Source: Aspidapion aeneum
Lineage: Eukaryota > Arthropoda > Insecta > Coleoptera > Brentidae
Length of the DNA stretch: 64,000 nucleotides
Assembly: GCA_963576565.1 (NCBI GenBank)
Contig: OY755039.1
Span: forward strand, 131,457,140-131,521,139
Direction of reading: 5' to 3'
Part shown: positions 7,601 to 60,169 of the stretch, piece after piece
Numbering within the stretch: the first letter of the stretch is position 1
How the letters are laid out: each line of letters begins with the position of its first letter
Translations under genes and position numbers: made by a program
Notes under the pieces: generated by a model
The model's input: only the letters and a program-made list of their open reading frames with translations
Told to the model about the DNA's origin: nothing
Databases searched by the model: none

Positions 7601-9978
7601 ACTTCAGGGTTCGTATCTCAGCAAGGGTACTACCCAGATGAAATCAGTGATATATTATTTTATAGGCTATTAGTTGGTCTTTATTTTACGTTCCCAAGTA
7701 ACATTATTACCACTCAAGGTTTTATTAATTTGGTTCCAAGGTTATTTAGAGGGTGCTGTTATGGCTTTTAGGATCAATTTGGCTACAAAAAGGTAATTTA
7801 TATTGCCAATTACCTAAAGAGGTGTTATACAACCAAAAAGTGTTCTTCTGTTCCTTTTAGATACTTTTGGTTTTATTGATTTCTGATTTATAAAGATGGT
7901 CTTATAAAACCCTTTTACCTAAAGTTTTTAAAAAGAAATAAATATAAAATTTGGTCTTTTAGTTTTTTTCATTACTTTAGGTCATTCAACAAAAGTGTTT
8001 ATAATAGAGCTAAAAGGTTGCCTTATATCCTTTTGTTTTTGTAGTTACCAGTAGTTTAATAGTAAATATGATTATATCGGCGGCCATATAGAACCTAGTT
8101 TCCTTAAGGTTTTTAAGAGTGGTAAATATAAACTTTAGACTTTTGGTTTTTGCCATTACTTTTAGGCATTTTAAACAGGTTTTAAAAGGAAGGCTTAAAG
8201 GTAAACTTAATTCTTTTGTATTTATGGTTACCCATAGCTGCATATTAAATATTATTTAAATAGGCGGTCATATAAAACTTTGTTTCCTTAAGGGTTCTAA
8301 CAGAAGTAAATAAATACTTTCGTATTTTAGTTTTTACTAGTACTAGTACAGATTGGTACCTACCTATTGCAAGATTGATTATTTATTATCCTCCTGGGTA
8401 GGGCACCCAAGCCTAGATAAGGCCTGTTTAAACGGCCAATATAAGAGGTTTCCCTCCAACCTGCAGGCACAACGGATATCATTGCACTGGACCTCCTGAT
8501 TGTGTGCAAATTGCACGATAAAAAACATTTAAATTTAACACAACACTTTAAAAAACAAATACAAAAAATTTAAGTGAGGTTATGTTCACTATGTTTACCT
8601 TCTCTTTTTTATTGGTTTCATAAGCGCAGTCAAAAATCCTTGTTGCGATAGAGTAACAAATAAAACCAAGTGACCACTATAAAACGATAATGGCGTATAT
8701 AGAATTATTTTAAAAATATTGTAAACAGAAAATATTTATCTAGTTGTTTTAGCAGTGTTTTTTAACAATAATTTTACTTTAATTTTGATTTATGCCTAAG
8801 GTCACTAATCGTCAAGCAAGCTTTACAGGTAGCGAAGCTAACGTCAGGGTTTCTATTTTTTGGTTATTATTTTTTACATTTTTTCCTCGGTTTCGCATTG
8901 GCGGTTCTGTTTTATTTTGAAGATGTTGTTTTACACAGTATGATGGTACCTAAACTATATATATTTATGTAATTAGAATTAAAAAGTTATGCTGCAAACT
9001 ATCTTGAAACTGTATCAATAATAAATAGATCTTTAGACTGTGTTAAAACCAGGTCGAAAATTTAAATTTGTTTTAAAGACTCCAATGTCAATGTCATATG
9101 TCAAAATCGCGACGACAACACCTTTTGCAAGCAGGGGGTCTGTGGCGGAGGGGGGGGGGCGGCCCCCCACAAGGTCGAAAATTCAAATTTGTTTTTAAGA
9201 CTCCAATGTCAAAGTCATATGTGAAAATCGCGACGACAACACCTTTTGCAAGCAGGGGGTCTTTTTTTCGCTTTAATGCCTGGCCTAATATAGCTAAATT
9301 ACCCAGTGCGTTTGACGGGTTTGCATTTTTTACTTTTTTTTTTAAGTAGCTACCTGTGTCGCTCACACAAAATTAGTCGAAGATTGTCTTATTGGGTCAA
9401 AAATCTCAATTTTTACCGCGAACAAAAAATACTCTGCCAATCTATGGGCACCTAAGCTCACACTAGGTACTATAGTTATAGTGTGAGCTGAAATATATTT
9501 TATTCAACTCCAGACTCAATTACCTTTCGTTTGATACCACACAAGCCATGTTTTGACTTAAAATCAAATTTTTTTAATCTACCCCCCACCCTTTTAAAAA
9601 AACTAAAATGTATTTTGTTTAACTCCAGACTCAATTACCTTTCGTTTGATATCACACACGCCATATTTTCACTTAAACTCTAATTTTTGACATCTACCCC
9701 CACCCTTTTTTTAAAAATAAACTAAAATTAATTTTTTTAAACTCCAGACTTAATTACCTTTCGTTTGATATCACACACGCCATATTTTCACATAAACTCT
9801 AATTTTTGGAATCTACCCCCACCCTTTTATTTGGCTTGCGTTCGGTGGATTTTGTTCATTTTTAAATGGGACCATCACGGCCCAAGACCCAACTTAGGTA
9901 CCAAATTTCATTAAAATCGGACAAGCGGTTTTTGAGTTATGCGGGTTGGTCGTTACAGACAGACATACAGACAGACAT

Positions 9979-13000: not shown

Positions 13001-16000
13001 AGGGTATTTTATAGAGCTAGGTTTGGAGGTTATATAGTGTCCAGGAAGTTACCTTAAAAAGGAGGCATTCCATCGAATTACTGTGGACACTGCGCACATC
13101 GCATTATCTGGACATCGTAATTGGAACTTGAGATCACAGGTTTCGGGAAAAATCACATAAAACTTTTGATTGCTGTGTTTATCTGTAAAATTTCGTAGTT
13201 TTCTTTGACGTTCACGAAGATAAACAGCTGTTCTGCTGGGGCATGGCGGCGTTGCCGCATCACAAATGGTTTCAGTAACAGGAAGAAAACATTTAGGTGA
13301 ACATTTCATTCGCTTATGTTTATTTTCGAGGATATTGGGACAATCATTTCTCTTCCGGAACTCATATCCTTCACGGATTAGCTAGTTTTGATAGCACGAA
13401 AATATATTTGGGTCCACGGTTCGACCAGGAACAACCGAGGCTCCGCCCCTTTAATATCTTTATTAATTTGATAAGGAGAAGATAAAATAAATACGAGTTA
13501 TGCACTTTTGTAAATGGGTGATAAACGAGGGATAAAAACCAGGACTAAAAGAATAAACAAAATCGTATTTTTATATTATATAAATTTATATATAATCATA
13601 GTTAAATAAAGTTAATAGCTAACTCAGTCGGATTGGAAGGTTGTGTAGGGCTAGCTAGTGGTGAGCAAACTTAACATCTGGCCGGGTTTAAGCAGTAGTT
13701 CAATGTGTATTTTTAGGTTCAAGTTCAGAAACAACTTTATTAATGTAGAAATGTTTTACAAAAATGGCGTCAAACCATATGAATCTTAGAGAAAACATAT
13801 CTAAAGAGCAAAGGAAACTTTTGACTAAAACTGTAACTAAAATACAACTAAATTCTACACTCAGTATAGCTTTACTCATATGGGAATTGGTTGAGTGTTC
13901 GAATATTCCTGGGTTTGATGCATGCTCTGATCTCCAGTAATTGATTTTACAGTTGATGGTTTCAATGCTGAGCTTCTTATAGTCCTGCTGGTTATTTTCC
14001 TCCTACTTGCTATGTCGGCGGGGGTCCGGTGGGCAAATGTTCGGTCTATGTATGGAGGGTGTCTCGATGTCCTTGTTATAAAAATTTCAACCGTGGAAAT
14101 AGATCCGACAACACCTCAATGTGCGTTTTACGTATTTTCGATATCCCCTTGGTCGATGCTGCCCCCTGTAGACCGGTACGGAAGTATTAATGTATTTCCT
14201 CATTGGTTAGTTTGAAAACCGCGGGTTTTTTTCTCCAGGCTCGCAAACCGAATTTAGTGATTTTTCGACGAGAGCGTTTTTTTTATAAATGGGTTTGCAT
14301 CCTTATTTGAATTTAACCGGGAAAATTTGGTTGGTACTGTGTACTGTCCCCACCAAATCTAGAAACGATTTCCGGCAACTTCATTTTTTTTGTGTTCTTG
14401 AAAAAGTGTCTTGTCTCTTTCCTAAAGAATCCACATTGGCACTTAATGGCACTGCAGTAGTTGCAGATTATACCAAAGACGGTATAACTGTGAGCCGTCG
14501 TTGTTTAGGCGAATCTTAAGTGACGCATACACCCTCTGAGAGGGATTTAAGGCGGCCTACGCCGTTTCTACAGGAAAGAAGCGTGCCCGTCCATTCCATC
14601 GACGGGACAGTTTTGCTGGTGGAACGAGGTTCGAGCCAGTTGTAACCCTGGGAAAGGTACGTTAGGATTATTTTAGTTCATCTGTTTAAATCTACTTTAT
14701 TTTATTGAGTCGACATGGGGTTCTCGATTTAAGTCACTCGGTGTAGGGGAACTTCGTGCAAAATAGACGAATTCCAGGAAACTGAAACATTTCATTTTCC
14801 ACAGGGTTTTTATGCTCGGGCAAGAATCCAACAGCATTCTTCTGACCATGTACTGCCCTAGCGTCATGTGCTAGATAATCAGCAGGGGAGGCGCGGGCAG
14901 AACTGGGACCGATGTAGCAGTGAGGAGATGTCTGGACAACACCAGGTTTACAAAATAAAACACACATTTACTCATACAATAATCAAGGACCAAGGTAGGA
15001 GCGAGCTTTAGATTTAATTTCTTTTTTTTAATAATTTTCTTTGTATAATTTCAGTATTGCTTGTAAACGCAAAAAGGTATGACGTCATAGCCCCAATTTT
15101 GCGGTATATTTAAGATAATTTTCCTGTGACATTTAAAGTGCCTTGCTATTTTGGCCCTGTTTTATTTCCAACCATTTAATTTTTTTTCCTATTTCATGTT
15201 TCTGGTATTTTTATCAGGATTTAAAATAAACAAGATGAACTAAATCTTTGTGTTATTTGTACAATCCAGTGAACCAACTTTGCAGAGACAAAAGAGAGAT
15301 GAGGTTATATTTTTTAGAGGTTTCCTTACATTGTTTTACCTCATGGGGTAGATCTCGGACTGGGTTGCTGTCTGTCTACGTTGGGTAGAATGATGACAGC
15401 AGATATTTGGTCCAGATCTCCCCTATGACGGAATAATTTTGAAAGATTTTTTTTTTTTTACAATCATTTATATAACTGAGTCTCACACTACTGACTCAGA
15501 TGTAGGTACACTATGACCTGTTAAAGGAGTCCATCTACCTGTAACGTGCCTCTAGTTTTGTCATCTTAATTCAATCTTTTACAATTTTATTTTGTCGATG
15601 AGTCAATTTTTTTTTTGGTTTTTTTTAATTGGACAAATACTCTGGAAGCCTCGGAAGTAGGTAGAATTTCATTGTTTGGCTACAACGTTTGGGTTGAACT
15701 GTATTTTAATTAAGATCTTCTTTGTAAAACATTGATATTAAAATACTGTGGCGCTTAAAATTTTCTTATTTCTGAACCCCCCCTTCTCCACTGTATAAAA
15801 GTTACCGGGCATATCAGTGTTTTACCTATACAGTTCTGCTTCCAGATATTTGTTTAATTACTCAGTAATTTTCTTTTAGTGTCACAAATTGGCACAGCGT
15901 TATTATTCTATTTAATTGGCCACAGAGCTAATATAACTAAAATCTGAAATATATTTTATTAAACTCCAGGCTCAATTACCTTTCGCTTGATACCATACAA

Positions 16001-19000
16001 GCCATGTTTTTAACCTCTAATTTTTTAAATCTACCCCCACCCTTTTTTTAAAACCAAAATGTATTTTGTTTAACTCCAGACTCAATTAGCTTTCATTTGA
16101 TATCACACACGACATATTTTCACTTAAACTCTATTTTTTGAAATCTACCCTTTTTTTAACTAAAATTTATTTTGTTTAACTCCAGACTCAATTACCTTTC
16201 GTTTGATATCACACAAGCCATGTTCTCACATAAACTCTAATTTTTGAAATCTACCCTCACCCTTTTATTTGGCTTGTGATTGATGGATTTTGTTCATTTT
16301 CATTTTTCCCAAGTTAAAAGTTTGCAAATAATTGGGAAAATACTGTAAGAGAGCACTTTTGAGAGGGGTGAGAGGAGGGATCCCCACTTTGAAAAAGGTT
16401 AACTAGAAAAAGTCAGTTTTAAGTTATTACTAACCAAAAATAATTTTTTTACTCTCTATTTTTATTTACTTGTTTTCGTAACTTAGTGGCACACTAGGAA
16501 AAACTACTCTGCCAATATATGGGTACCTAAGCTCACACCAGGTACTATAGTTATAGTGTTCGTGTGAGCTAATATAACTAAAATCTGAAATATATTTTAT
16601 TAAACTACAGGCTCAATTACCTTTCGTTTGATACCATACAAGCCATGTTTTAACTTTACCTCTAATTTTTGAAATCTACCCCCACCCTTTTTTTAAAACC
16701 AAAATGTATTTTGTTTAACTCCAGACTCAATTAGCTTTCGTTTGATATCACACACGACATATTTTCAGTTAAACTCTATTTTTTTAAATCTACCCCCACC
16801 CTTTTTTTTAACTAAAATTTATTTTGTTTAACTCCAGACTCAATTACCTTTCGTTTGATATCACACAAGCCATGTTTTCACATAAACTCTAATTTTTGAA
16901 ATCTACCCCCACCCTTTTATTTGGCTTGTGATTGATGGATTTCGTTCATTAAATGAATGGGACCATCCCGACCCGAGACCCAGCCTAGGTACCAAATTTA
17001 ATTAAAATCGGGCAAGCGGTTTTTGAGTTATGCGCGTTGGTCGTTACAGACATACAGACGGACAGACAGACGGCGCAACAAAAAAGTTTCAAAATCATCT
17101 GAAACGCAAAGATATATAAAAATTTTTGAAATCGGAGCAATTTTTTTTTCTCGAAAAAATTAGGATCACCATAGCTCACACTACTATAGTATAGTAGTAG
17201 TGTGAGCTAATATAGTTTTTTTTCTGTCTACTTTTAAAAATATGAAGTGTTATATTTTTTTAACTATGCCTAGATTTGCCGGACCCCAACATAGAAAAGG
17301 TATTTTACCTTGAATTTTTGCTGCACATACCAAAACAATATGAGCTAAAACAATAGAAAAAAATAATATACAGGGTGCTATACTACAATAAAACATGCTT
17401 TTTTATTAACACACCTTGTACATATATTTTTTTCTACTGTTTTTTTAGTTTATTCTCCTACTATAACATACCAAATTTATAGCAAATTCCACCGAGACAA
17501 AAAAATCCCATATAACCTGTGTAAACGGGATTCTTACCTCTCCATGTATGCCAACAGCAACTCTCATAAGCATATGCTGAGGCCTCTCAGCAATTTTTCC
17601 ATTAATTTTTAGCAAATATGACCTTTCTAAGGTCTTAAATCCAAAATAATTGTATGAAAAGTCTCTGTCATATATAATACAGGAGTTAAGGCGATCAGCA
17701 TTTTCCATAATGATATTGTAATGAGTTTCTGATATCATTGGAGTGCATTTTCTCGTTTTGGTATTAACCATAGTGTAGAGGTCGTAAATAACGTCTGAAA
17801 ACAAAAAAATGGGTTTTGATTGATATCAATTTTTTTTAAACATGCCTAACATATTATTCAAAAATATAATACCATAAAGTTACTCATAAAAGAAAGTTGT
17901 CAAAATTTAACAAATATAGTGTGTTTGGAATTGGGGATAGATATTTTCCACAAGACTATTTTTGTTTCATTTTAATATTTTTTTAAAATTATTTTTCTTT
18001 TTACAATTTTGGTAAAGTTTAAGAAACAACATTTTAGTTTTTTTTAATTAATTTAAAATTTGAATACACCTGCGCACCACCCCCGCCATGAAGCGACGAT
18101 TAACGGCACAAACTGCTACGACATAATGCAAAAACAAAAAGAGTGCCAGAAATATAGAGACTCATGTTACCTTTGTGGACCTACAAAAAACATATGATGC
18201 CGTTCCAGTAGAAAAATTGACAGTGTTAGAACAAATCAATATCAATCATACATACATAAAAGCGATAAAAGAACTCTGCAAAGGGTCAAAATTTAAAATT
18301 AAAGTTGGGAATCGACTATCAAAAGAATTCCTGGTCACGAAAGGCTTAAGACAGGGATGTTGTATTTCTCCAACTCTTTTTAAATTTTATATCACAGTAG
18401 CTCTGAAAAAACTGGATACGTAAAGTGCACGGCATGGGAATAAAAGTTAACGACCGATGTACCATATACACACTACAGTTTGGTGACGACCAAGTAATTG
18501 TAGCTAATGATAAAGAAGACATGGATATGATGAAAAAGTTAACGGAAAAATACCAAAAGTGCGGGTTAACAGTAAACGTGGACAAGACACAGTACTTATG
18601 TATTGGAAACGAATCAAGTGAGTTAGAACTAGACAATGGATAAACAATATCTCCATGCAATGAGTTTGTATACTTGGGTGTCACATTTGATACGACAGGA
18701 ACAGACTGGAAAGAAGAAAGAAATAGTAAAGGCGAAAAAGGTTATTGGATGTCTTAGCAGTATTTTATGAAGCAGAGAGATAAAAAATAATGTAAAATTT
18801 AACATATATGAAGCAATCGTAAAAACCACGCTGTTGTACGGAATGGAGATCGGCTTAGATCGTCTAGAATTAGGATAATAAATTGGAAGTGACACGTCAC
18901 GTCGAAGGAACTTGCGGGAACCTAATTCCGATTTTCTTAATTTTAAACTAACAAAAGGTATATGTATGATAAGTTATAGAGACAAACATTTTAACCTTAC

Positions 19001-22000: not shown

Positions 22001-25000
22001 TTGTAGTTTTGATATATTGTGGTTTCAATATTTTGTAGTTTCGATATTTTTTAATACGATAAAATGTAGTTTTGATATTTTGTGGTTTTGATATTTTGTA
22101 GTTTCGATATTTTGTATGTTTTCGATATTTTGTATTTTTGATATTTTGTGTTTTCGATATTTTGTGTTTCAATATTTTTTCGCCCTTCCGCCTCGGTAGC
22201 TCAGCAGGAAAGGACGCTGGTTCAAATCCCGCCTGAGGTAAACCTTTTTATTATCTTATTTTTCCCTTGTCCTTATGCCACTAAATTCTCCTCGTTGTAC
22301 AATTTATATTTAGGACGCTTAAACTAACCTTTGTGATTTTCAGTTTGGCTTGAAATTGTTTGTTGGAAATTCCACGTCTGATACTTTAGTGACGCGCTAT
22401 ATATCGTGCATCATTGGTAGATGGATAACTAGGGTTTCATTCAACTTTCTAGTGGTTTTTTAGACCTTCTGTTTTAGTGAAGTGAAGTGAAGTGAAGTGA
22501 AGTGAAGTAAAGTAAAGTAAAGTAAAGTAAAGTAAAGTAAAGTAAAGTAAAGTCGAGGGGTCATCGGCACCCTAAAATTTTGTACAGCGTCCAACAGGAC
22601 TTGAGTACTGTTGGGTACTGTCGTGTACTGTCGAGTACTGTTGGGTCCTGTCGAGTACTGTTGAGTACTGTCGTGTACTGTCGAGTACTGTTGGGTCCTG
22701 TCGAGTACTGTCGTGTACTGTTGGGTCCTGTCGTGTACTGTCGAGTACTGTTGGGTCTTGTTGAGTACTGTCGTGTACTGTTGGGTCCTGTCGAGTACTG
22801 TTGGGTCCTGTCGAGTACTGTTGAGTACTGTCGTGTACTGTTGGGTCCTGTCGTGTACTGTCGAGTACTGTTGAGTACTGTCGTGTACTGTTGGGTCCTG
22901 TCGTGTACTGTCGAATACTGTTGGGTCCTGTTGGGTCCTGTCAAGTACTGTCGTGTCCTGTTGGGTCCTGTAGATTACTGTTAAGTACTGTCGTGTTCTG
23001 TTGGGTCCTGTCAAGTACTGTCGTGTCATGTTGGGTCCTGTAGAGTACTGTTAAGTACTGTCGTGTTCTGTATGGAAAAAATTACAAAATTTTAATAATT
23101 AGAGACATAAAAAGGTCGTTTTGGTGCAAAAGCAGTGGCGGTCTGTGGGGTGCAAAGCTGGAGGAGCGAAAATCGACTTGAAGGTGGAAATTATGATTTT
23201 ATTTAAACTATATTGAGTAATTGTAATTACACTATTAAGATCTGGTAAGGACCTACCCAGTTTTTAACTGTTTTTTTATCTTCCAAAAACTGTTTTTTTT
23301 TTTCATAATATTACTGAAGTGGTCGAGATGCAGTTCTAAATAAATTTGTGTGTATGTATGGATAGTTTAAGGTGTTGGACGCTCGACTGCAGATCCAAAG
23401 GCCATGAGTTCGATTCTCACATAAAACTTTTTTTTTTCAAACAACTTTAAATTAAAATTTGCTAATGACCAATTAATACGGGTTGCTTACGTGATGGTCA
23501 TGAATATTTATACAGTGTCTCAAAATCTCTCTGCACTTTATTTGCATTAGAATTAACCTTATTCGTATTAAAAATAACGATATAACAACTATCAAATTCT
23601 CGATCAAATTTTTAACTTTTGTTTATTAAAATTAAAAAACATATAAAACAAAAAATGGAAATTATACAAAAATTGGCAACGGTGGATACACTTTAATCAG
23701 CAGGCGTTGAAAAGGAAACGATCCCGCCACTGCTTTTGCACCCAAACCTCGACCAAAACGACCTTTTTATGTCTCTAATTATTAAAATTTTATAATTTTT
23801 TCCATACAGAACACGACAGTACTTAACAGTACTCTACAGGACCCTCGACAGGACCCAACAGGACACGACAGTACTTGACAGGACCCAACAGAACACGACA
23901 GTACTTAACAGTAATCTACAGGACACAACAGGACACGACAGTACTCAACAGGACCCGACAGGACCCAACAGTACACGACAGGACCCAACAGGACCAAGAC
24001 AGTACCTGACAGGACCCAACAGGACTGAATTATTTTGGTTCATATCATTCATTCATAAAAATATAAAAATAAACGGACTTTTTTTGTCTCGTTTTTTGTC
24101 CATACCAATAAAAATTTATTTTTGATAAAAGTTCAATAAAAGAGGGACGAAGAGGGATCAATTCCCTCGCAAAATACTCGATAAAGTATATTCAACTCGG
24201 TATTCAAAGTATTTTTTAGGGACACAAAGAAGTGCAAAGAAGACAAAAATACGCAAAAATATTTTACAATACCCTCGGTAATTGCACTATTAGCGGGACT
24301 ATTAGTCTATGCTTCAGTTTAGATCTTGTAATGACCTACCCAGATTTTTATTTGTTTTTATATTCGATTGGATTTTTAAATATTACTGACGCAATCGAGA
24401 TGTAGTTCAAAAAGATATTCTATATAAGGTTATAGATAGCATAAAGTGTGGAGTGTTTGGCTCATGATCCGCAGGTCATGGGTTCGAGGCCCACACCTCG
24501 CATTTTTTTTTCTTTTAAACAATTTTAATTAAAATTTATTAATTACTGCTAGGTAGTTTTGGTTTAACAGCAGTGTATATTTTAAAGAATTTTGTTTTTG
24601 TATTGGAACCGATTAAAGATTAGCGCTTGAAAAGCAAACGATTTCAAATAGGTTAGGATAGGTTTCCGACCGTTTCCGACTCGGTTTCCGATTAATTGAC
24701 CAAGGTTAGGTGTGGTTTAACAACGATTTCAACCTCCCAAAACGAGGAAATAAAAGTTTTAATTTTAAAAATTTCGCCTTTTATCCGACTTTTATCTAAT
24801 ATTCTCATTTTGAAATTCCCGCAGAGACAGTTTTACACGAAGTTTTACATTGGGATCGTTTGCTTTTCAACGCCTGCTGATCGACTGCTGATTAAAGTGT
24901 ATCCACCGTTGCCAATTTTTGTATAATTTCCATTTTTTGTTTTATTAATATGTTTTTTAATTTTAATAAACAAAAGTTAAAAAAGATCAATGGAGGCATT

Positions 25001-28000
25001 TTGGGTCAGTTAAAATAACAAAAAAATTTGATAGTTGTTATATCGTTATTTTTAATACGAATAAGGTTAATTCTAATGCAAATAAAGTGCAGAGAGATTT
25101 TGAGACACTGTATAAATATTCATGACCATCACGTAAGCAACCCGTATTAATTAGTCATTAGCAAATTTTAATTTAAAGTTGTTTGAAAAAGAAAAGTTTT
25201 ATGTGAGAATCGAACTTATGGCCTTTGGATCTTCAGTCGAGCGTGCAACACCTTATACTATCCATACATACACACAAATTTATTTAGAACTGCATCCCTA
25301 CTTCAGTAATATTATGAAAAAAAAAACAGTTTTTGAAAGATAAAAAAAAAGTTAAAAACTGGGTAGGTCCTTACCAGATCTTAATAGTGTAATTACAATT
25401 ACTCAATATAGTTTAAATAAAATCATAATTTCCACCTTCAAGTCGATTTTCGCTCCTCCAGCTTTGCACCCCACAGACCGCCACTGCTTTTGCACCAAAA
25501 CGACCTTTTTATGTCTCTAATTATTATAATTTTATAATTTTTTCCATACAGAACACGACAGTACTTAACAGTACTCTACAGGACCCTCGACAGGACCCAA
25601 CAGGACACGACAGTACTTGACAGGACCCAACAGAACACGACAGTACTTAACAGTAATCTACAGGACCCAACAGGACACGACAGTACTCAACAGGACCCAA
25701 CAGTACTCAACAGGACCCGACAGTACTCAACAGTACTCGACAGGACCCAACAGTACTCGACAGTACACGGCCGTACTCAACAGTACTCGACAGGACCCAA
25801 CAGTACTCGACAGTACACGACAGTACCCAACAGTACTCAACAGGACCCAACAGTACACGACAGTACTCAACAGTACTCGACAGGACCCAACAGTACTCGA
25901 CAGTACCCAACAGTATTCAACAGGACCCAACAGTACACGACAGGACCCAACAGTACTCGACAGTACACGACAGTACTCGACAGGACCCAACAGTACTCGA
26001 CAGTACACGACAGTACTCAACAGGACCCAACAGTACACGACAGTACTCAACAGTACTCGACAGGACCCAACAGTACTCGACAGTACACGACAGTACCCAA
26101 CAGTACTCAACAGGACCCAACAGTACACGACAGTACTCAACAGTACTCGACAGGACCCAACAGTACTCGACAGTACCCAACAGTACTCAACAGGACCCAA
26201 CAGTACACGACAGGACCCAACAGTACTCGACAGTACACGACAGTACCCAACAGGACCCAACAGTATTCGACAGTACACGACAGGACCCAACAGTACACGA
26301 CAGTACTCAACAGGACCCAACAGTACTCGACAGTACACGACAGGACCCAACAGTACACGACAGTACTCAACAGGACCCGACAGGACCCAACAGTACACGA
26401 CAGGACCCAACAGGACCACGACAGTACCTGACAGGACCCAACAGGACTGAATTATTTTGGTTCATACGAGGGTTCATATCATTCATTCATAAAAATATAA
26501 AAATAAACGGACTTTTTTTGTCTCGTTTTTTGTCCATATCAATAAAAATTTATTTTTGATAAAAGTTCAATAAAAGAGGGACGAAGAGGGATCAATTCCC
26601 TCGCAAAATACTCGATAAAGTATATTCAACTCGGTATTCAAAGTATTTTTTAGGGACACAAAGAAGTGCAAAGAAGACAAAAATACGCAAAAATATTTTA
26701 CAATACCCTCGGTAATTGCACTATTAGCGAGACTATTAGTCTATGCTTCAGTGTAGATCTTGTAATGACCTACCCAGATTTTTATTTGTTTATATTTTCC
26801 AGATTGGATTATTTTTAAATATTACTGACGCAATCGAGATGTAGTTCAAAAAGATATTCTATTTAAGGTTATAGATAGCATAAAGTGTGGAGTGTTTGAC
26901 TCTTGATCCGCAGGTCATGGGTTCGAGGCACACCTAGCATTTTTTTTTCTTTTAAACAACTTTAATTAAAATTTATTAATTACTACTAGGTAGTTTTGGT
27001 TTAACAGCAATGTATATTTAGTATATTTTAAAGAATTTTGTTTTTGTATTGGACTCGAGATTGGAACCGATTAAAGATTAGCGCTTGAAAAGCAAACGAT
27101 TTCAAATAGGTTAGGACGGGATAGGTTTCCGATCAATTGACCAACGTTAGGTTTGGTTTCGGTTTGGTTTGACAACGATTTCAACCTCCCAAAACGAGGA
27201 CAGGAAAGTTCGAGGTTTTAATTTTAAAAATTTCGCCTGTTATCGAGCCTGTTATCTAATATTCTCATTTTGAAAATCCCGCAGAGACAGTTTTACATTG
27301 GGATCGTTTCGGATCGTTTGCTTTTCAACGCCTGCTGATTAAAGTGTATCCACCGTTGCCAATTTTTGTATAATTTCCATTTTTTGTTTTATTAATATGT
27401 TTTTTAATTTTAATAAACAAAAGTTAAAAATTTGATCGAGAATTTGATAGTTGTTATATTGTTATTTTTAATACGAATAAGGTTAATTCTAATGCAAATA
27501 AAGTGCAGAGAGATTTTGAGACACTGTATAAATATTCATGACCATCACGTAAGCAACCCGTATTAATTAGTCATTAGCAAATTTTAATTTAAAGTTGTTT
27601 GAAAAAAAAGTGTTTTATGTGAGAATCGAACTTATGGCCTTTGAATCTTCAGTCGAGCGTGCAACACCTTATACTATCCATACATACACACAAATTTATT
27701 TAGAACTGCATCCCGACTACTTCAGTAATATTATTTAAAAAAAAAAACAGTTTTTGAAAGATAAAAAAAAAGTTAAAAACTGGGTAGGTCGAGGGGTAGG
27801 TCCTTACCAGATCTTAATAGTGTAATTACAATTACCTCGACAATTACTCAATATAGTTTAAACTCGAGTTTAAATCGAGGTTTAAATAAAACGAGAAATA
27901 AAATCATAATTTCCACCTTCAAGTCGATTTTCCGAGCGATTTTCGCTCCTCCAGCTTTGCACCCCACAGACCGCCACTCGCCACTGCTTTTGCACCAAAA

Positions 28001-31000
28001 CGACCTTTTTCGTTTATACCTTTTTATGCGAGATGTCCTCGGAGATGTCCGAGGAGATGTCTCTAATTATTAAAATTTTATAATTTTTTCCATACAGAAC
28101 ACGACAGTACTTAACAGTACTCTACAGGGCCCAACAGGACACGACAGTACTTGACAGGATCCAACAGGACGCGACAGTACTTGACAGGACCCAACAGGAC
28201 TCAACAGTACACGACAGGACTCAACAGGTCCCAACAGTACTCGACAGGCCCAACAGTACTCGACAGGACTCAACAGTACCTGAAAGGACCGGACAGGACC
28301 CAACAGTACTCGACAGGACCCGACAGTACTCAACAGGACCCAACAGTACTCAACAGGACCCGACAGGATCCAACAGTACTCGACAGGACCCAACAGTACC
28401 CAACAGGACCCAACAGTACTCAACAGGACCCGACAGGACCCAACAGTACTCGACAGGACCCAACAGTACCCAACAGGACCCAACAGTACTCGACAGGACC
28501 CAACAGTACTCGACAGTACACGACAGGACCCAACAGTACACGACAGTACTCAACAGGACCCAACAGTACTCGACAGTACACGACAGGACCCAACAGTACA
28601 CGACAGTACTCAACAGTACTCGACAGGACCCAACAGTACTCGACAGTACACGACAGTACTCAACAGTACTCGACAGGACCCAACAGTACTCGACAGTACA
28701 CGACAGTACTCAACAGGACCCAACAGTACACGACAGGACCCAACAGTACTCGACAGTACACGACAGTATCCAACAGTATTCGACAGTACACGACAGGACC
28801 CAACAGTACACGACAGTACTCAACAGGACCCAACAGTACTCGACAGTACACGACAGGACCCAACAGTACACGACAGTACTCAACAGTACTCGACAGGACC
28901 CAACAGTACTCGACAGTACACGACAGTACTCAACAGTACTCGACAGGACCCAACAGTACTCGACAGTACACGACAGTACCCAACAGTACTCAACAGGACC
29001 CAACAGTACACGACAGGACCCAACAGTACTCGACAGTACACGACAGTACCCAACAGTATTCGACAGTACACGACAGGACCCAACAGTACTCAACAGGACC
29101 CAACAGTACTCGACAGTACACGACAGGACCCAACAGTACACGAGAGTACTCAACAGGACCCGACAGGACCCAACAGTACACGACAGGACCCAACAGGACC
29201 ACGACAGTACCTGACAGGACCCAACAGGACTGAATTATTTTGGTTCATATCATTCATTCATAAAAATATAAAAATAAACGGACTTTTTTGTCTCGTTTTT
29301 TGTCCATACCAATAAAATTTATTTTTGATAAAAGTTCAATAAAAGAGGGATCAATTCCCTCGCAAAATACTCGATAAAGTATATTCAACTCGGTATTCAA
29401 AGTATTTTTTAGGGACACAAAGAAGTGCAAAGAAGACAAAAATACGCAAAAATATTTTACAATACCCTCGGTAATTGCACTATTAGTCTATGCTTCAGTT
29501 TAGATCTTGTAATGACCTACCCAGATTTTTATTTGTTTTTATATTCCAGATTGGATTATTTTTAAATATTACTGACGCAATCGAGATGTAGTTCAAAAAG
29601 ACATTCTAAATTAGGATATAGATAGCATAAAGTGTGGAGTGTTTGGCTCATGATCCGCAGGTCATGGGTTCGAGGCCCACACCTTCAATTTTTTTTTCTT
29701 TTAAACAACTTTAATTAAAATTTATTAATTACTACTAGGTAGTTTTGGTTTAACAGCAGTGTATATTTAGTATATTTTAAAGAATTTTGTTTTTGTATTG
29801 GAACCTCGATTGGAACCGATTAAAGATTAGCGCTTGAAAAGCAAACGATTTCAAATAGGTTAGGACGGGATAGGTTTCCGATCAATTGACCAAGGTTAGG
29901 TTTGGTTTCGGTTTGGTTTAACAACGATTTCAACCTCCCAAAACGAGGACAGGAAAGTTCGAGGTTTTAATTTTAAAAATTTCGCCTGTTATCTAATATT
30001 CTCATTTTGAAATTCCCGCAGAGACAGTTTTACATTGGGATCGTTTAGTGGCGGTCTGTGGGGTGCAAAGCTGGAGGAGCGAAAATCCCGAAAATCGACT
30101 TGAAGGTGGAAATTATGATTTTATTTAAACTATATTGAGTAATTGTAATTACACTATTAAGATCTGGTAAGGACCTACCCAGTTTTTAACTTTTTTTTTA
30201 TCTTTCAAAAACTGTTTTTTTTTTCCATTACTGAAGTCGACTGAAGTAGTCGGGATGCAGTTCTAAATAAATTTGTGTGTATGTATGGATAGTTTAAGGT
30301 GTTGCATGCTCGACTGAAGATCCAAAGGCCATGAGTTCGATTCTCACATAAAACTCTTTTTTTTTTTTCAAACAACTTTAAATTAAAATTTGCGAAATTT
30401 TTAAAATTAAAACTTTCCTGTCCTCGTTTTGGGAGGTTGAAATCGTTGTTTAACCCGAGGTTAAACCAAACCGAAACAAAACCTAACCTTGGTCAATTGA
30501 TCGGAAACCTATCCCGTCCTAACCTATTTGAAATCGTTTGCTTTTCAAGCGCTAATCTTTAATCGGTTCCAATCGAGTCCAATACAAAAACAAAATTCTT
30601 TAAAATATACTAAATATACATTGCTGTTAAACCAATACTACCTAGTGGTAATTAATAAATTTTAATTAAAGTTGTTTAAAAGAAAAAAAAAATGCTAGGT
30701 GTGGGCCTCGAACCCATGACCTGCGGATCATGAGTCAAACACTTCACACTTTATGCTATCTATATCCTAAACTAGAATATCTTTTTGAACTACATCTCGA
30801 TTGCGTCAGTAATATTTAAAAATAATCCAATCTGGAATATAAAAACAAATAAAAATCTGGGTAGGTAATTACAAGATCTAAACTGAAGCATAGACTAATA
30901 GTCTCGCTAATAGTGCAATTACCGAGGGTATTGTAAAATATTTTTGCGTATTTTTGTCTTCTTTGCACTTCTTTGTGTCCCTAAAAAATCCTTTGAATAC

Positions 31001-31715
31001 CGAGTTGAATATACTTTATCGAGTATTTTGCGAGGGAATTGATCCCTCTTCGTCCTCTCGTTCGTCCCTCTTTTATTGAACTTTTATCGAGACTTTTATC
31101 AAAAATAAATTTTTATTGGTATGGACAAAAAAAGTCCATTTATTTTTATATTTTTATGAATGAATGATATGAACCCTCGTATGAACCAAAATAATTCAGT
31201 CCTGTTGGGTCCTGTCAGGTACTGTCGTGTACTGTTGGGTCCTGTCGAGTACTGTCGTGTACTGTTGGGTCCTGTCGGGTCCTGTTGAGTACTGTCGTGT
31301 ACTGTTGGGTCCTGTCGTGTACTGTCGAGTACTGTTGGGTCCTGTTGAGTACTGTCGTGTACTGTTGGGTCCTGTCGTGTACTGTCGAGTACTGTTGGGT
31401 CCTGTCCAGTACTGTTGGGTCCTGTCGAGTACTGTTGGGTCCTGTTGAGTACTGTCGTGTACTGTTGGGTCCTGTCGTGTACTGTCGAGTACTGTCGAGT
31501 ACTGTTGGGTCCTGTTGAGTACTGTTGAGTACTGTCGTGTACTGTTGAGTACTGTCGTGTACTGTTGAGTACTGTCGTGTACTGTTGAGTACTGTCGTGT
31601 ACTGTTGGGTCCTGTTGTGTACTGTCGAGTACTGTCGAGTACTGTTGGGTCCTGTTGAGTACTGTCGTGTACTGTTGGGTCCTGTCGTGTACTGTCGAGT
31701 ACTGTCGAGTACTGT

Positions 31716-31747
<32 letters not shown>

Positions 31748-34700
31748 TCAACGTATAAGGTACATTTTCAAGTAAATTAAATTAAATACAGTTGTTTAAA
31801 ATCCTAACTTATTATTGCACAAGCAATGAGCAATAATAAATCACCAAACAATTTTATGTAAGAACAAATTTTTTTGCAGCTGATTTAAATTTTTCTAAGT
31901 TTGAAAAATTAAAATAATCAAGTTTAGAGTAATGTTTATTAGCAGTGTTTGATATTCGGTTTACTGGACAATGGAGCAAGTAGAATGCTCTACAGTATGG
32001 CACATGTAGAAGAGACTGGTTACGAGTGTGATAAGCTGGAACATGTATTTTAAGAGTTTCTAAACATTCAGGACTCTTAGTAATGTTGTTAAAAATTTTA
32101 TATACAAAGCACACATCGTAATACTCTCTTCTGCTGGACAAACTGTTCAGATTAAGGTAGGACTGAGTTAAGTCTCTTGTAAGATGTGTGCCAGTTTTTG
32201 AAAGAGTGTAGCATGCAAACTTTAGAAATTTGTTTTGGACATTATTTAATCTGTCTATGTGGATTTGATTATAAGGACACCAAATAATATTAGAAAATTC
32301 AAGTATTGACCTTGTTGGGTCCTGTTGAGTACTGTTGAGTACTGTCGTGTACTGTTGAGTACTGTCGTGTACTGTTGGGTCCTGTTGTGTACTGTCGAGT
32401 ACTGTCGAGTACTGTTGGGTCCTGTCGGGTCCTGTTAAGTACTGTCGTGTACTGTTGGGTCCTGTCGTGTACTGTCGAGTACTGTTGTGTCCTGTCGAGT
32501 ACTGTTGGGTCCTGTTGGGTACTGTTGGGTCCTGTTGAGTACTGTTGGGTCCTGTTGAGTACTGTCGGGTCCTGTCGAGTACTGTTGGGTCCTGTCGAGT
32601 ACTGTCGGGTCCTGTTGAGTACTGTTGAGTCCTGTTGAGTACTGTTGGGTCCTGTTGAGTACTGTCGGGTCCTGTCGAGTACTGTTGGGTCCTGTCAGGT
32701 ACAGTTCGGGTACAGTTGAGTCCTGTCGAGTACTGTTGGGCCTCTCGAGTACTGTTGGGTCCTGTTGAGTACTGTTGAGTCCTGTTTAAACTATATTGAG
32801 TAATTGTAACTCGTTGTAATTACACTATTAAGATCTGGTAAGGACCTACCCAGTTTTTAACTTTTTTTTTATCTTTCAAAAACTGTTTTTTTTTTTCATT
32901 ACTGAAGTCGACTGAAGTAGTCGGGATGCAGTTCTAAATAAATTTGTGTGTATGTATGGATAGTTTAAGGTGTTGCGTGCTCGACTGAAGATCCAAAGGC
33001 CATGAGTTCGATTCTCACATAAAACTCTTTTTTTTTTCAAACAACTTTAAATTAAAATTTGCGAAATTTTTAAAATTAAAACTTTCCTGTCCTCGTTTTG
33101 GGAGGTTGAAATCGTTGTTAAACCCGAGGTTAAACCAAACCGAAACAAAACCAAACCTTGGTCAATTGATCGGAAACCTATCCCGTCCTAACCTATTTGA
33201 AATCGTTTGCTTTTCAAGCGCTAATCTTTAATCGGTTCCAATCGAGTCCAATACAAAAACAAAATTCTTTAAAATATACTAAATATACATTGCTGTTAAA
33301 CCAAAACTACCTAGTGGTAATTAATAAATTTTAATTAAAGTTGTTTAAAAGAAAAAAAAATGCTAGGTGTGGGCCTCGAACCTATGACCTGCGGATCATG
33401 AGTCAAACACTCCACACTTTATGCTATCTATAACCTTATATAGAATATCTTTTTGAACTACATCTCGATTGCGTCAGTAATATTTAAAAAGAATCCAATC
33501 TGGAATATAAAAACAAATAAAAATCTGGGTAGGTCATTACAAGATCTAAACTGAAGCATAGACTAATAGTGCAATTACCGAGGGTATTGTAAAATATTTT
33601 ATTTTGTCTTCTTTGCACTTCTTTGTGTCCCTAAAAAATACTTTGAATACCGAGTTGAATATACTTTATCGAGTATTTTGCGAGGGAATTGATCCCTCTT
33701 CGTCTCTCTTTTATTGAACTTTTATCAAAAATAAATTTTTATTGGTATGGACAAAAAACGAGACAAAAAAAGTCCGTTTATTTTTATATTTTTATGAATG
33801 AATGATATGAACCAAAATAATTCAGTCCTGTTGGGTCCTGTCAGGTACTGTCGTGGTCCTGTTGGGTCCTGTCGTGTACTGTTGGGTCCTGTCGGGTCCT
33901 TTTGAGTACTGTCGTGTACTGTTGGGTCCTGTCGTGTACTGTCGAGTACTGTTGGGTCCTGTTGAGTACTGTTGGGTACTGTCGTGTACTGTCGAGTACT
34001 GTTGGGTCCTGTCGAGTACTGTTGAGTACTGTCGTGTACTGTTGGGTCCTGTCGTGTACTGTCGAGTACTGTTGGGTCCTGTTGAGTACTGTCGTGTACT
34101 GTTGGGTCCTGTCGTGTACTGTCGAGTACTGTTGGGTCCTGTCGAGTACTGTTGAGTACTGTCGTGTACTGTCGAGTACTGTTGGGTCCTGTCGAGTACT
34201 GTCGTGTACTGTTGGGTCCTGTCGTGTACTGTCGAGTACTGTTGGGTACTGTCGTGTACTGTCGAGTACTGTTGGGTCCTGTCGTGTACTGTCGAGTACT
34301 GTTGGGTCCTGTCGTGGTACTGTCGGGTACTGTTGTGAAATTTGTACAGTACTGTTGAAAGCTGATGACCCCTCGAGTAAAGTAAAGTAAAGTAAAGTAA
34401 AGTAAAATGTAAAGTAAAGTAAAGTAAAGTAAAGTAAAGTAAAGTAAAGTAAAGTAAAGTAAAGTAAAGTAAAGTAAAGTAAAGTAAAGTAAAGTAAAGT
34501 AAAGTAAAGTAAAGTAAAGTAAAGTAAAGTAAAGTAAAGTAAAGTAAAGTAAAGCAAAGTAAAGTAAAGTATATCACAGATTAGATTTAGGTCTTAAAGT
34601 GAATTTTGTCAAACTTTATCTTTGTTCCCTTGTCTGAACGGTATTCGACCAACAATCAAATGTACCATGGAAATTGAAGAAGATTCGGCCTTACCATTTT

Positions 34701-41850: not shown

Positions 41851-43629
41851 AGTCGAATCAGGTTTGAAACTGTAGCTGCGTTCGGTATTTGCATCTCAGA
41901 CGCAACGGATTTTTGGTCACGTGATTACAGATTAGTCTGAGCAAATTGGAATTAACGAACGATTCGGATCAAATCGATCAAATTATTATAAATGGTTATA
42001 GCCTTAAATATAACCAAAAATATTATGTACATATTGCAACTCACGCCCAGCTATAATTTTGATAAAATTTTCCTGTGATGTCGGAAATTTATATAATTTG
42101 TTGTCTTCAACATCAAATAATTCATTTCAATCGTTTTCCATAAAATTATTTTTGTAATCAAAACAAATACACAACATAACGTCACAATCTCGGATTAATC
42201 TGTTTCGTCGATCAAAATGTACAGAGCAACCAGATTTACGTCCGACTAGTCTGAGCAGAATTACCGAACGATTCAGAGGTTTCGGTGCACTATCCGGACA
42301 CTAAAACGAGACATTTTTTGATGACGATTCTTTTTGAAAATAGTAATTTAGGGATCTTGAAACTGATTTAAGTACGGAAAATTTTAAAAAATAGAGTTTG
42401 TTAAATAAAAAACACACTTTTCAATTTCTATCTAAAATGCACACAAAAAAACATACACAGGGATATTGGCAATAGATACTATGGACTTTGGGCCATTTGC
42501 TGGGGTTTTATTCTTTTATTCCGTGACTGACTGGAAATGCGAGGTTGCCACAACACAGGCATAAAATAAAATATTTTGATTGGTCCCTTCTTTCTGGCAT
42601 TCATATTTTTTTAACCAATAAATTAAAAGGGAAAGCTTGGATCAGGATAAGGTTCATTATATTTGTAGAAAGGCTGGGTTTGGGTTGGTATTGGTAGAGC
42701 TGGGAAGCCTTGATTTAGGTTTGGTTTGGGTTCAGTTGGGATGGGTTGGTTTGTTTTGTTTTGGTTTGGTTCAGTTTGGTTCGCTTCGCGTTCGGTTGGG
42801 ATCGGTTCGGTTCGGGTTGGTTCTGATCGGTTCGGTTCAGGTTGGTTCGGTTCGGTTCGGTTGGGCTCGGTTTCGTTCGGGTTCGGTTGGGATCGGTTCG
42901 GGTTGGTTCCGTTCGGTTCGGTTTAGGTTGGTTCCGTTCGCATTTCCAGTCAGTCACGGAATAAAAGAATAAAACCCCAGCAAATGGCCCAAAGTCCATA
43001 GTATCTATTGCCAATATCCCTGTGTATGTTTTTTTGTGTGCATTTTAGATAGAAATTGAAAAGTGTGTTTTTTATTTAACAAACTCTATTTTTTAAAATT
43101 TTCCGTACTTAAATCAGTTTCAAGATCCCTAAATTACTATTTTCAAAAAGAATCGTCATCAAAAAATGTCTCGTTTTAGTGTCCGGATAGTGCACCGAAA
43201 CCTCTGAATCGTTCGGTAATTCTGCTCAGACTAGTCGGACGTAAATCTGGTTGCTCTGTACATTTTGATCGACGAAACAGATTAATCCGAGATTGTGACG
43301 TTATGTTGTGTATTTGTTTTGATTACAAAAATAATTTTATGGAAAACGATTGAAATGAATTATTTGATGTTGAAGACAACAAATTATATAAATTTCCGAC
43401 ATCACAGGAAAATTTTATCAAAATTATAGCTGGGCGTGAGTTGCAATATGTACATAATATTTTTGGTTATATTTAAGGCTATAACCATTTATAATAATTT
43501 GATCGATTTGATCCGAATCGTTCGTTAATTCCAATTTGCTCAGACTAATCTGTAATCACGTGACCAAAAATCCGTTGCGTCTGAGATGCAAATACCGAAC
43601 GCAGCTACAGTTTCAAACCTGATTCGACT
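41851..43629. mobile_element. 1.8-kb near-perfect palindrome (foldback element)
   Basis: Left arm 41851-42542 and right arm 42939-43629 are reverse complements with almost no differences over about 690 bp. The 396-bp centre contains a G-rich GGTTCGGTT-type pentanucleotide tract. Each arm includes two related blocks: CAGATTAGTCTGAGCAAATT and GACTAGTCTGAGCAGAATT. A diverged relative is at 38985-39590. Open frames in the centre are repeat artefacts. Confidence 0.92.
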
Positions 43630-59800: not shown

Positions 59801-60169
59801 GCTTAAACTAAATTTAATCAGATTCAATCCATGTGACGTTTCATAGCTTAATAATGGTTCGGCATTGCCTTCTATAACATAAACGTCTGCAGTTATAGAT
59901 TGTTCTCGATATGAGAAAAATCCATGAAATTTGCCAACTACAGGAAGATGTTGTTCTGAATTGTAAGGACATATCAATGAAGAATCTTGGAAAAGTTTAA
60001 CATTTGATAAACTATTGAAGATGTTCTTGTTAATAATGTTCACTGAGGATCCTGTGTCAACTATGAAATTTTGACTAATTCCATTTAGATTTAACGTAAC
60101 TCGGGGAAGAGTTGAGATTTTGTTCAGTTTGTAAACAGTGAAAGAGGAATCTGAATCAGAGCCTTTCAA
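56828..60169 (-). CDS. pol: Pol polyprotein of the Ty3-type element
   Basis: 1113 codons, uninterrupted. In order: aspartic protease with DTGS at about 38-41; reverse transcriptase at about 170-350 with KLDLKDGYHQ (D256) and the catalytic box FSDD (316-319); RNase H at about 455-570 with HVDAGPNG (D465), the IERE region and FTDHKPL (D531); integrase zinc region H682, H685, C715, C718; integrase core with D746, D801 and E837 (35 residues between the last two); then a basic C-terminal region. All catalytic acids are present. The first codons overlap the end of gag by 14 nt in a different frame, so expression probably needs frameshifting. The F-S-D-D form of the RT box is typical of mag-like relatives. 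Confidence 0.95.
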   Translation of the reverse strand: MKGSDSDSSFTVYKLNKISTLPRVTLNLNGISQNFIVDTGSSVNIINKNIFNSLSNVKLFQDSSLICPYNSEQHLPVVGKFHGFFSYREQSITADVYVIEGNAEPLLSYETSHGLNLIKFSLSNNKVVIDSEYIKQNFPNVVKGIGKFNQFEVKLHVDDSVHPVAQKHRRLPFHMREKVEAEINRLLDQDIIEPAEGPTPWVSPIVVVPKSDPTKIRMCVDMRSANKAIKRERHLTPKIDDLVLLLNNAKVFSKLDLKDGYHQLLLEKTSKHLTTFSTHIGLFRYKRLFFGINAAAEILQNTIRQVLSNIDGVINFSDDILIFGEDQASHDKALLNVLTRLEKANLTINEQKSIFNQSKIKYSGYVFSSDGIHTDPEKVEVFVNMQSPTNPSEVRSLLGMINFVGKFIPNLASKTKILRDLTLSSAEWKWTSTHKKVFEDLKNELMNLKNLSYYDISKPTQLHVDAGPNGVGAILSQRDNNKNNIIAYGSRALSSVEQRYSQIEREMVAVSWAITHFHLYLYGQQFQLFTDHKPLISILQNPRSAPNLRIERLCLRIQPYSFDVFHPKGENNPSYYLSRNPFDKQIPRAAKIEEYVSFHTSCSLPKSMTLDEVEKETVKDKTLQKLSSIIDNSSNYYSCSDEDLKPFKNIIQEITLYRNILLRGTRIILPTSLRERAVKLAHKGHLGIVRTKQLIRTKIWFPNINSMVESYVRSCAACQAVTPDVSRSPIRSSELPGTPFEQLDVDFAGPFPNGKYIFLMVDEYSRYPIAEVVNSTSFMAVKPILEKYFSLFGRALIVKSDNGPPFNGKDFKDFLESYGILHRKITPYWPEANGMVERFVKTIKKSLVCANLETSQFDSQLQEFLANYRSVPHSTISKTPYELMFSRPVRTCFPSILDKQEHGSNNEIQEADKRNKLKQKEHADKKRNCKSHGFKIGDLVLCQQLRKNSLTSFYDPKPFRIVKIFGDKIVAQRNGKNIERNSSFFKIFIPTVAKEIESRSRASPSPLQPIVKPVSRSDYIFNKAENEDTQHSDESHINHMPLEENENHLNNFDPDQLEENGIPFVQNPIQRPALISPSTSHEMNEPESDKTSCSVPGRPRRHTSTPHWMKDFV

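What the first reader, a model, noticed from the sequence alone, without database searches (positions are those of the whole stretch)
24025..33826. More than twenty 8-bp duplications split by CGAG, CTCG, CGA or CG: apparent excision footprints
Comparing paralogous spacers shows insertions of one design: an 8-mer, then CGAG or CTCG (sometimes trimmed to CGA or CG), then the same 8-mer. Verified first-copy positions: 24662 and 24672 (GTTTCCGA), 24778 (CTTTTATC), 24874 (CTGCTGAT), 26459 (GGTTCATA), 26720 (ACTATTAG), 27236 (CCTGTTAT), 27429 (AATTTGAT), 27782 (GGGTAGGT), 27828 (ACAATTAC), 27855 (AGTTTAAA), 27868 (GTTTAAAT), 27884 (AAATAAAA), 27925 (CGATTTTC), 28030 and 28042 (GAGATGTC), 29797 (ATTGGAAC), 31080 (ACTTTTAT). 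Sister copies keep the single 8-mer, for example 24041 and 29243 for GGTTCATA, and 29475 for ACTATTAG. CGAG and CTCG are the two terminal tetranucleotides of the element that contains them. The simplest reading is repeated insertion and excision of an 8-bp-TSD transposon with CGAG ends, concentrated in this locus.
Basis: partly seen in the sequence, partly recalled or inferred. Interest (0 to 1): 0.95.

Follow-up and report, generated by a model that had tools for sequence, protein, structure and literature searches.

The report
Jumping gene scarred by its kin
A large, repeat-filled jumping gene in an animal genome, perhaps a beetle's, carries many tiny scars, each an 8-letter duplication around the four letters found at the tip of the jumping gene itself, which look like the marks left when members of its own family jumped in and out of it.

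Summary
The window holds an 11,822-bp non-autonomous transposon (22554-34375; ends CGAGGGGTCATC/GATGACCCCTCG; 8-bp target duplication AGTAAAGT). Its non-repeat spacers (6,947 bp) carry 25 exact 8-mer/4-nt/8-mer structures; 23 have CGAG or CTCG, and resampled sequence gives 0.3. None of this kind lies in the other 52 kb. The own genome has 1,306 exact copies of the right end. In 13 relative loci, 93 of 103 period-12 structures inside elements are CGAG/CTCG, against 0 of 19 in 63 kb of flank. 29 of 35 distinct 8-mer/spacer pairs have an empty counterpart.

Best reading: excision footprints of this family inside itself, suggesting that the non-transferred strand is cut 4 nt inside each end, as in Sleeping Beauty (3 nt) but with 8-bp duplications. 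Two target 8-mers are duplicated at both ends of a 6.3-kb inversion that made the foldback shape. Insertion sites favour RTTnnAAY.

The transposase was not found; P, MULE and hAT searches gave no linked copy in the part examined, so the superfamily is open. Why only element DNA is hit is also open (autointegration, local hopping or tethering by the 10-bp arrays).

The parts
22554..34375 (+). Element E: 11,822-bp non-autonomous transposon that contains all the footprints
   Evidence: no stop-to-stop ORF of 150 aa or more inside apart from array frames and a frame through the 31717-32312 insert
22546..22553 (+). Left copy of the 8-bp target duplication AGTAAAGT, inside an (AGTAA)n array
   Evidence: the pentamer phase requires a duplication of 3, 8 or 13 bp
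34376..34383 (+). Right copy of the 8-bp target duplication AGTAAAGT
22554..22600 (+). Left terminal inverted repeat and subterminal region (CGAGGGGTCATCGGC...; ACAGGAC motif)
   Evidence: 97-100% identical ends in relatives
34331..34375 (-). Right terminal inverted repeat; its 38-bp end occurs 1,306 times exactly in the genome
26459..26478 (+). Footprint GGTTCATA-CGAG-GGTTCATA; also at 31168 (reverse); empty in sisters a1 (24037), a3 (29242) and a5
   Evidence: genome-wide states
26720..26739 (+). Footprint ACTATTAG-CGAG-ACTATTAG; also at 30895 (reverse); CGGG variant at 24286; empty in two sister spacers
24080..24099 (+). Footprint TTTTTTGT-CTCG-TTTTTTGT; also at 26514, 29284 and 33750 (reverse); empty in sister a4
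24662..24691 (+). Two serial scars on the same 8-mer GTTTCCGA (spacers CC/CG and CTCG)
27782..28061 (+). Cluster in spacer b3: GGGTAGGT, ACAATTAC, AGTTTAAA, GTTTAAAT, AAATAAAA, CGATTTTC, and GAGATGTC twice, plus trimmed ones; some nested
   Evidence: 1 substitution in 215 aligned bp against b2; the cluster is shared by other loci
29797..29816 (+). Footprint ATTGGAAC-CTCG-ATTGGAAC; other repair forms at the same site in a2, a4 and a5; empty in a1
33117..33136 (-). Footprint GGTTTAAC-CTCG-GGTTTAAC (read on the - strand)
23716..23731 (+). Inversion junction J1: AAACGATC joined to CCGCCACT
30039..30054 (+). Inversion junction J2: GATCGTTT joined to AGTGGCGG
28090..29232 (+). One of seven blocks of 10-bp minisatellite (ACAGTACTCG/ACAGGACCCA), 4,279 bp in all
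   Evidence: core motif shared with the subterminal ACAGGAC
39230..39552 (+). Short relative M1 (323 bp), flanks GTCTGGAT/GTCTAGAT
39585..39718 (+). Short relative M2 (134 bp), flanks ATTACAAA/ATTAAAAA
31717..32312 (-). Insert between two arrays, with a (TTTA)n end; no footprint in its 596 bp

Best explanation
Each 8-mer/CGAG-or-CTCG/8-mer is the scar of a member of E's own family that inserted (8-bp staggered strand transfer) and then excised by cut and paste. The transferred strands must be cut exactly at the element tip; the other strands are cut 4 nt inside it. The donor gap is then left with two 3' overhangs reading CGAG. Paired with each other, their outer bases form C:G and G:C pairs around two G.A mismatches. 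Repair or replication turns this into CGAG or CTCG; trimming to the self-complementary CG gives the 2-nt class. Shown: the scars, their 8+4 design, the 8-bp duplications of whole elements, empty sister sites, and confinement to element DNA in the stretches examined. Inferred: the overhang, its polarity, and the mismatch step.
For: E spacers: 25 period-12 structures, 23 with CGAG/CTCG, against 0.3 in resampled sequence. 30 loci: 222 period-12 structures outside arrays, 212 with CGAG/CTCG. 35 distinct 8-mer/spacer pairs with CGAG or CTCG, 29 with an empty counterpart allowing one mismatch per flank. ATTGGAAC occurs with CTCG and with CGAG at one and the same place. Among spacers of 0-8 nt the 4-nt class has most distinct sites (59, of which 33 CGAG/CTCG), then 2 nt (19, of which 10 CG) and 3 nt (19, of which 5 CGA/TCG). 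The blunt-fill product CGAGCTCG is absent from E and from all 43 loci L036-L078. Ten elements have 8-bp duplications, 7 perfect. Inside elements 93 of 103 period-12 structures are CGAG/CTCG, in flanks 0 of 19. Symmetrised target preference over 40 8-mers, 0 of 5,000 random sets from E's spacers as strong. Precedent: Sleeping Beauty, whose cut 3 nt inside the end leaves non-complementary CAG overhangs and a footprint (PMC7351741 passages; PMC7827188 passages).
Against: No occupied state was seen at a footprint 8-mer: 0 exact genome-wide at GGTTCATA; nested ends were seen only in arrays, one end each (L068, L076, L077). The transposase is unknown. Many copies of a footprint are inherited, so events are far fewer than structures. 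The equal numbers of CGAG and CTCG (106 and 106; 18 and 17) are no evidence, since the two are one sequence read on either strand of randomly oriented targets; only ATTGGAAC shows both outcomes at one place. One search also finds 26 distinct 4-nt sites with other spacers; some are one mutation away, others ordinary repeats. Sequence alone cannot tell 3' from 5' overhangs. The inversion junctions have no spacer, unlike the footprints.
Confidence: 0.77

Rival explanations
1. Self-scarring (autointegration and escape): the excised element attacks its own interior, the resulting inversion circle is cut again at the two ends, and end joining restores a linear element that carries one internal footprint. 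Each failed cycle scars only the element itself.
For: Footprints are confined to element interiors in the stretches examined. A foreign pogo-like MITE inside the element of L070 carries footprints at both its ends, so family sequence is not needed in the target. Autointegration with inversion circles is known for Sleeping Beauty and is promoted by element size (PMC3952818 abstract and passages). It needs no long-lived occupied state (0 at site 1).
Against: Re-excision of an autointegrant is not described in the passages read. Nested ends do exist inside arrays. Two targets are needed for the inversion. The same MITE in L076 and L077, also inside elements, is unscarred.
Confidence: 0.22
2. Insertion in trans, steered into family members by transposase bound to the 10-bp arrays, or local hopping between units, followed by ordinary excision.
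For: All six ends compared carry the array core ACAGGAC or a near form subterminally. Nested ends sit inside arrays. P elements prefer nearby sites (PMC7776569 passage).
Against: Binding to the array is not shown. Few footprints are seen in arrays (ACAGGACC and GACCCAAC among 35 pairs), though arrays may be homogenised.
Confidence: 0.45
3. Footprints of hAT-type hairpin excision or of Mutator-type excision.
For: 8-bp duplications fit hAT (recalled) and MULEs. The relative MITE in L074 begins CAAGGGG, which fits the hAT start YARNG (recalled).
Against: hAT hairpins form on flanking DNA, so scars would vary with the 8-mer (recalled); here they are the element's tip. Muta1 excises precisely in about 90% of cases with donor TSDs (PMC5225508 passages). 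No hAT or MULE hit lies near a listed right end on the part of C1 compared, and one hAT flank read has no end of this family.
Confidence: 0.12
4. Not transposition: templated repair, slippage or assembly error.
For: Short duplications are common products of break repair (general knowledge).
Against: Constant 8+4 design, constant spacer equal to the element tip, absence from the flanks examined, recurrence in many loci.
Confidence: 0.02

Closest known systems
Tc1/mariner, Sleeping Beauty canonical footprint
   Same: Target duplication around the element's terminal bases; explained by a cut a few nt inside the end and non-complementary 3' overhangs (passages)
   Different: 4 nt not 3; 8-bp duplication not TA; short TIR with a subterminal array; no transposase known
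P element superfamily
   Same: 8-bp duplications, short TIR, staggered cut at the ends with a 3' extension (passages); P transposase hits are abundant in this genome
   Different: P staggers 17 nt; TIR CATACCTGTCAAC in zebrafish Pdre2; no linked P gene in the loci examined; a P element found here has TIR CTTAGACAAGG
Foldback elements such as Tetris of Drosophila virilis, and MULEs such as Muta1
   Same: Inverted arms, tandem repeats, 8-10-bp duplications (passages)
   Different: E's foldback form comes from one internal inversion of a direct-repeat element; Muta1 excision is mostly precise

Membership tests
Class II cut-and-paste TIR transposon | Terminal inverted repeats | tested here: met
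   12-17 bp TIR shared by the six ends compared
Class II cut-and-paste TIR transposon | Fixed-length target duplication | tested here: met
   8 bp in 10 elements, 7 perfect; pairs were selected by the 8-mer; one end pair (L075) had no match, its right flank matching the left flank in L076
Class II cut-and-paste TIR transposon | DDE transposase in autonomous copies | tested here: inconclusive
   not found; only P, MULE and hAT profiles were searched and only the best candidates are scored
P superfamily | 8-bp duplication | tested here: met
   as above
P superfamily | 17-nt staggered cut | tested here: not met
   footprints keep 4 nt or fewer, if footprint length reports the stagger; spacers above 8 nt were scanned only (E; to 12 nt)
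P superfamily | Linked P transposase gene | tested here: inconclusive
   10 of 150 scored loci examined, 8 with 1.5-kb flanks, 3 with 8 kb (L089 and L083 are one place): no end with 3 or fewer mismatches in 8, only unpaired 4-mismatch hits in 3; 17 C1 hits lie 61 kb or more from the 100 listed right ends
hAT superfamily | 8-bp duplication | tested here: met
   as above
hAT superfamily | Hairpin-derived footprint without element bases | tested here: not met
   footprints carry CGAG/CTCG independent of the 8-mer; the hAT feature itself is recalled
hAT superfamily | Linked hAT transposase gene | tested here: inconclusive
   150 of 3,687 candidates scored; 14 C1 hits lie 37 kb or more from the listed right ends; one flank of 1.2 kb read
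Mutator superfamily | 8-10-bp duplication | tested here: met
   8 bp
Mutator superfamily | MULE transposase linked | tested here: inconclusive
   66 hits; the 3 on C1 below 102.6 Mb lie 263 kb or more from the listed right ends; flanks not read
Tc1/mariner | TA target duplication | tested here: not met
   8-bp duplications of varied sequence

The most novel reading that the evidence does not exclude
A transposase lineage that combines 8-bp target duplications with a 4-nt staggered cut, whose elements repeatedly attack their own interior and escape by re-excision. Each element then keeps a written record of its failed self-insertions, and inversions such as J1/J2 make the foldback shape.
Probability: 0.2. 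Interest if true: 0.88.

Novelty: new variant of a known kind. Interest (0 to 1): 0.72.

Why it matters
Excision footprints are usually studied one at a time in laboratory assays (general knowledge). Here dozens of distinct ones, most with an empty sister site, are stored inside one family that has over a thousand exact ends. From sequence alone this gives the 8-bp stagger, a probable 4-nt cut offset, a target motif and an inversion with swapped 8-mers. It makes the cleavage geometry of an unassigned family directly testable, and may offer a natural record of self-insertion.

Tried and rejected
Outside collections: 35 viral contigs matched the 15-bp TIR pattern; one of them (L009, 69% GC) has two ends in facing orientation with up to 2 mismatches, not tested further, the other 34 none; the phage collection had no match to M1/M2. 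Rfam and ARAGORN found nothing in the window. The pattern CGAGGGGN{0,10}CGAG had 890 matches in the genome against 610 for its reversed control: not informative. One search used a best-match regex that missed E's left end; one search repeats the pairing. The idea that family interiors have no occupied sites was dropped after one search showed ends inside arrays of L068, L076 and L077 (the partner ends lie beyond the stretches). Three tests are not used: the Fisher test for that reason, the b3-cluster test because one search shows the cluster in several loci, and the concentration test because copies are not independent. Equal CGAG and CTCG counts were first taken as support and dropped as trivial. 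P loci L079-L089 and 1.2 kb downstream of a 765-aa hAT frame (L090) hold no convincing end of this family. P, MULE and hAT hits on the first 102.6 Mb of C1 (17, 3 and 14) lie at least 61, 263 and 37 kb from the 100 listed right ends of 1,306. The M1 DNA query did not complete. Profile PF21787 was asked once, not answered. Paper searches (listings; then abstracts or passages of seven papers) showed no paper with this TIR in a transposon context; one search listed 19 papers holding one of six strings, none about transposons by title. One protein search with a gypsy-type frame has Photinus and Zophobas as the first two named hits, ticks further down; hence only 'perhaps a beetle'.
Full report
What is there. 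The window is one stretch (C2:131457140-131521139) of a 1.286-Gb genome in 149 contigs. The first two named protein relatives of a gypsy-type polyprotein in it are from beetles, which is weak evidence for the host. At 22554-34375 lies element E, 11,822 bp, with CGAGGGGTCATC/GATGACCCCTCG ends and AGTAAAGT on both sides. It sits in an (AGTAA)n array, and the pentamer phase on the two sides requires a duplication of 3, 8 or 13 bp. E is built of blocks of a 10-bp minisatellite (4,279 bp in seven blocks) alternating with two kinds of spacer, a and b, in five copies each, some partial. It has no reading frame of 150 aa or more besides array frames and one through an insert.

The footprints. One search scanned periods 8 to 30 for runs no longer than the period. 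In E's spacers (6,947 bp) period 12 stands out: 25 structures, against 15 at period 10, 4 at period 11 and 0 to 5 elsewhere. Of the 25, 23 have CGAG or CTCG between the 8-mers; the other two have CGGG and CGAA. Resampled sequence gives 0.3 per set and none with CGAG/CTCG. Outside E there are 4 period-12 structures, none of this kind. They reduce to 18 distinct footprints at 17 sites. The aligned sister spacers show the same places without insertion in other copies: 19 of 22 site queries gave both states, the other three only one. Some footprints are serial or nested: GTTTCCGA twice, GAGATGTC twice, and one (with a mismatch) inside an older AAGAGGGA-CG footprint in a4.

The family. A DNA search with spacer a3 scored 40 of 512 candidates and gave 30 loci, the window's own among them. 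Thirteen 10-kb stretches were fetched; some overlap the 30, so locus counts are not counts of independent places. Relatives of 2.1 to 4.8 kb and short MITEs have 8-bp duplications: perfect in E, L053, L069, L071, L073, L078 and the L074 MITE, one mismatch in L072, M1 and M2. Selecting pairs by the 8-mer favours such pairs; L075 had two ends without a match, and its right flank GAATTAAT matches the left flank of the element end in L076, 21 kb away. The 38-bp right end occurs 1,306 times exactly; the reversed control pattern occurs 0 times.

Inside against outside. In the 13 stretches, element interiors (66,914 bp; extents set by hand) have 103 period-12 structures, 93 with CGAG/CTCG. The flanks (63,086 bp, including some stretches of other family members) have 19, none with CGAG/CTCG. 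Over all loci and E there are 35 distinct 8-mer/spacer pairs with CGAG or CTCG, 29 of them with an empty counterpart. Four 8-mers appear with both spacers; only ATTGGAAC does so at one place, while GACATCTC and ACCAAAAT are serial scars and GGTTCGAC lies at the two ends of one MITE. At site GGTTCATA the genome holds 170 exact empty, 39 exact CGAG-footprint and 0 exact occupied copies; E's own three empty and two footprint copies are among them. Because footprints are inherited, 39 copies need not be 39 events, and a low number of occupied copies is then less surprising.

Target choice. Over 40 8-mers (footprints and whole elements, not all independent), the symmetrised first position is 79% purine and positions 2 and 3 favour T, giving RTTnnAAY; none of 5,000 random sets from E's spacers was as informative. 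A smaller set of 26 gave p = 0.02. Symmetrising assumes a two-fold site; it does not prove one.

The inversion. E has direct and inverted repeats. Turning 23732-30046 around in a script removes every inverted self-match of 200 bp or more (147,675 aligned bp, redundantly counted, to 0), leaving a direct-repeat element. At J1 (23716-23731) AAACGATC meets CCGCCACT; at J2 (30039-30054) GATCGTTT meets AGTGGCGG. So both 8-mers are present at both junctions, 8 + 8 with no spacer (the split is ambiguous by up to 2 nt). Both places are scarred in another unit of E: GATCGTTT with CG at 27301, and a 7-bp insertion, not an 8+4 form, near 27972. Breaks with 8-bp stagger at two target sites and inverted rejoining explain this. 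Why there is no CGAG there is not explained. Tandem 8+8 repeats without spacer do exist in E (ATAAAAAT in all five a copies, TTATAATT in b2), but they are AT-rich, the first has no empty counterpart among the sisters, and the second differs from its sisters by substitutions, so they are no clear scars.

Mechanism. For strand transfer the 3' ends must be cut exactly at the tip (general knowledge of DDE enzymes). A scar with four bases of one tip then suggests that the other strand was cut 4 nt inside, leaving CGAG as a 3' overhang on both sides. CGAG against CGAG pairs at its outer bases around two G.A mismatches; resolving it gives CGAG or CTCG. Equal numbers of the two are expected from strand symmetry alone and prove nothing; both at the one place ATTGGAAC do speak for two outcomes. 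CG alone is self-complementary and is the commonest 2-nt spacer (10 of 19 distinct sites). Full fill-in would give CGAGCTCG, which is absent from E and from the 43 loci. This is how the Sleeping Beauty scar is explained, with 3 nt (passages of PMC7827188 and PMC7351741). P elements have a 17-nt stagger (passages of PMC7776569 and PMC10983969). The mosquito MULE Muta1 excises precisely in about 90% of cases with donor TSDs (passages of PMC5225508).

Why only in elements. Three accounts remain: autointegration with re-excision, local hopping, or tethering through the arrays, whose core ACAGGAC or a near form sits in all six ends compared. A foreign pogo-like MITE inside the element of L070 has footprints at both its ends, so the target need not be family sequence; the same insertion in L076 and L077, inside elements, and a copy in the flank of L075 have none. 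Against autointegration speaks that nested ends exist in arrays. I cannot decide between them.

Membership. The family is a TIR transposon by ends and duplications. P transposase hits are plentiful (150 scored) but none of the 10 loci examined has these ends. MULE and hAT hits were compared only by position on part of C1, plus one hAT flank. The superfamily is open.

Noticed in passing
41851-42542 and 42938-43629: Perfect 692-bp inverted arms 395 nt apart, with a GGTTT/GGTTC array around 42718-42940.
   Followed up: no
6881-7225, 9491-9829, 15947-16257, 16588-16922, 37312-37665: Tandem units of about 106-119 bp resembling, by eye, repeats beside P transposase hits in L084-L086.
   Followed up: no
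spacers a and b of E, e.g. 24450-24500 and 25200-25260: tRNA-like stretches by eye (GGTTCGAGGCC; rc ACTGAAGATCC); ARAGORN reports no tRNA gene. E may have captured SINE pieces.
   Followed up: no
L070:2290-2501: pogo-like MITE (name by eye) nested in a relative of E with a footprint on the same 8-mer GGTTCGAC at both its ends.
   Followed up: partly
L076:3986 to L075:6488 (C6:52223185-52244187): Outer flanks GAATTAAT on both sides, about 21 kb apart, with further family ends between: a possible composite transposon.
   Followed up: no
L089:1660-6743: P transposase locus with TIR CTTAGACAAGG and 8-bp duplication CGTGCTAC; tandem repeats beside P hits in L080-L083.
   Followed up: partly
C2:131406308 and six other places: Seven hAT hits with identical scores in 765-aa open frames, one 51 kb before the window: perhaps a recent hAT family.
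   Followed up: partly
56828-60214: gypsy-type polyprotein frame with RT, RNase H and integrase domains.
   Followed up: partly
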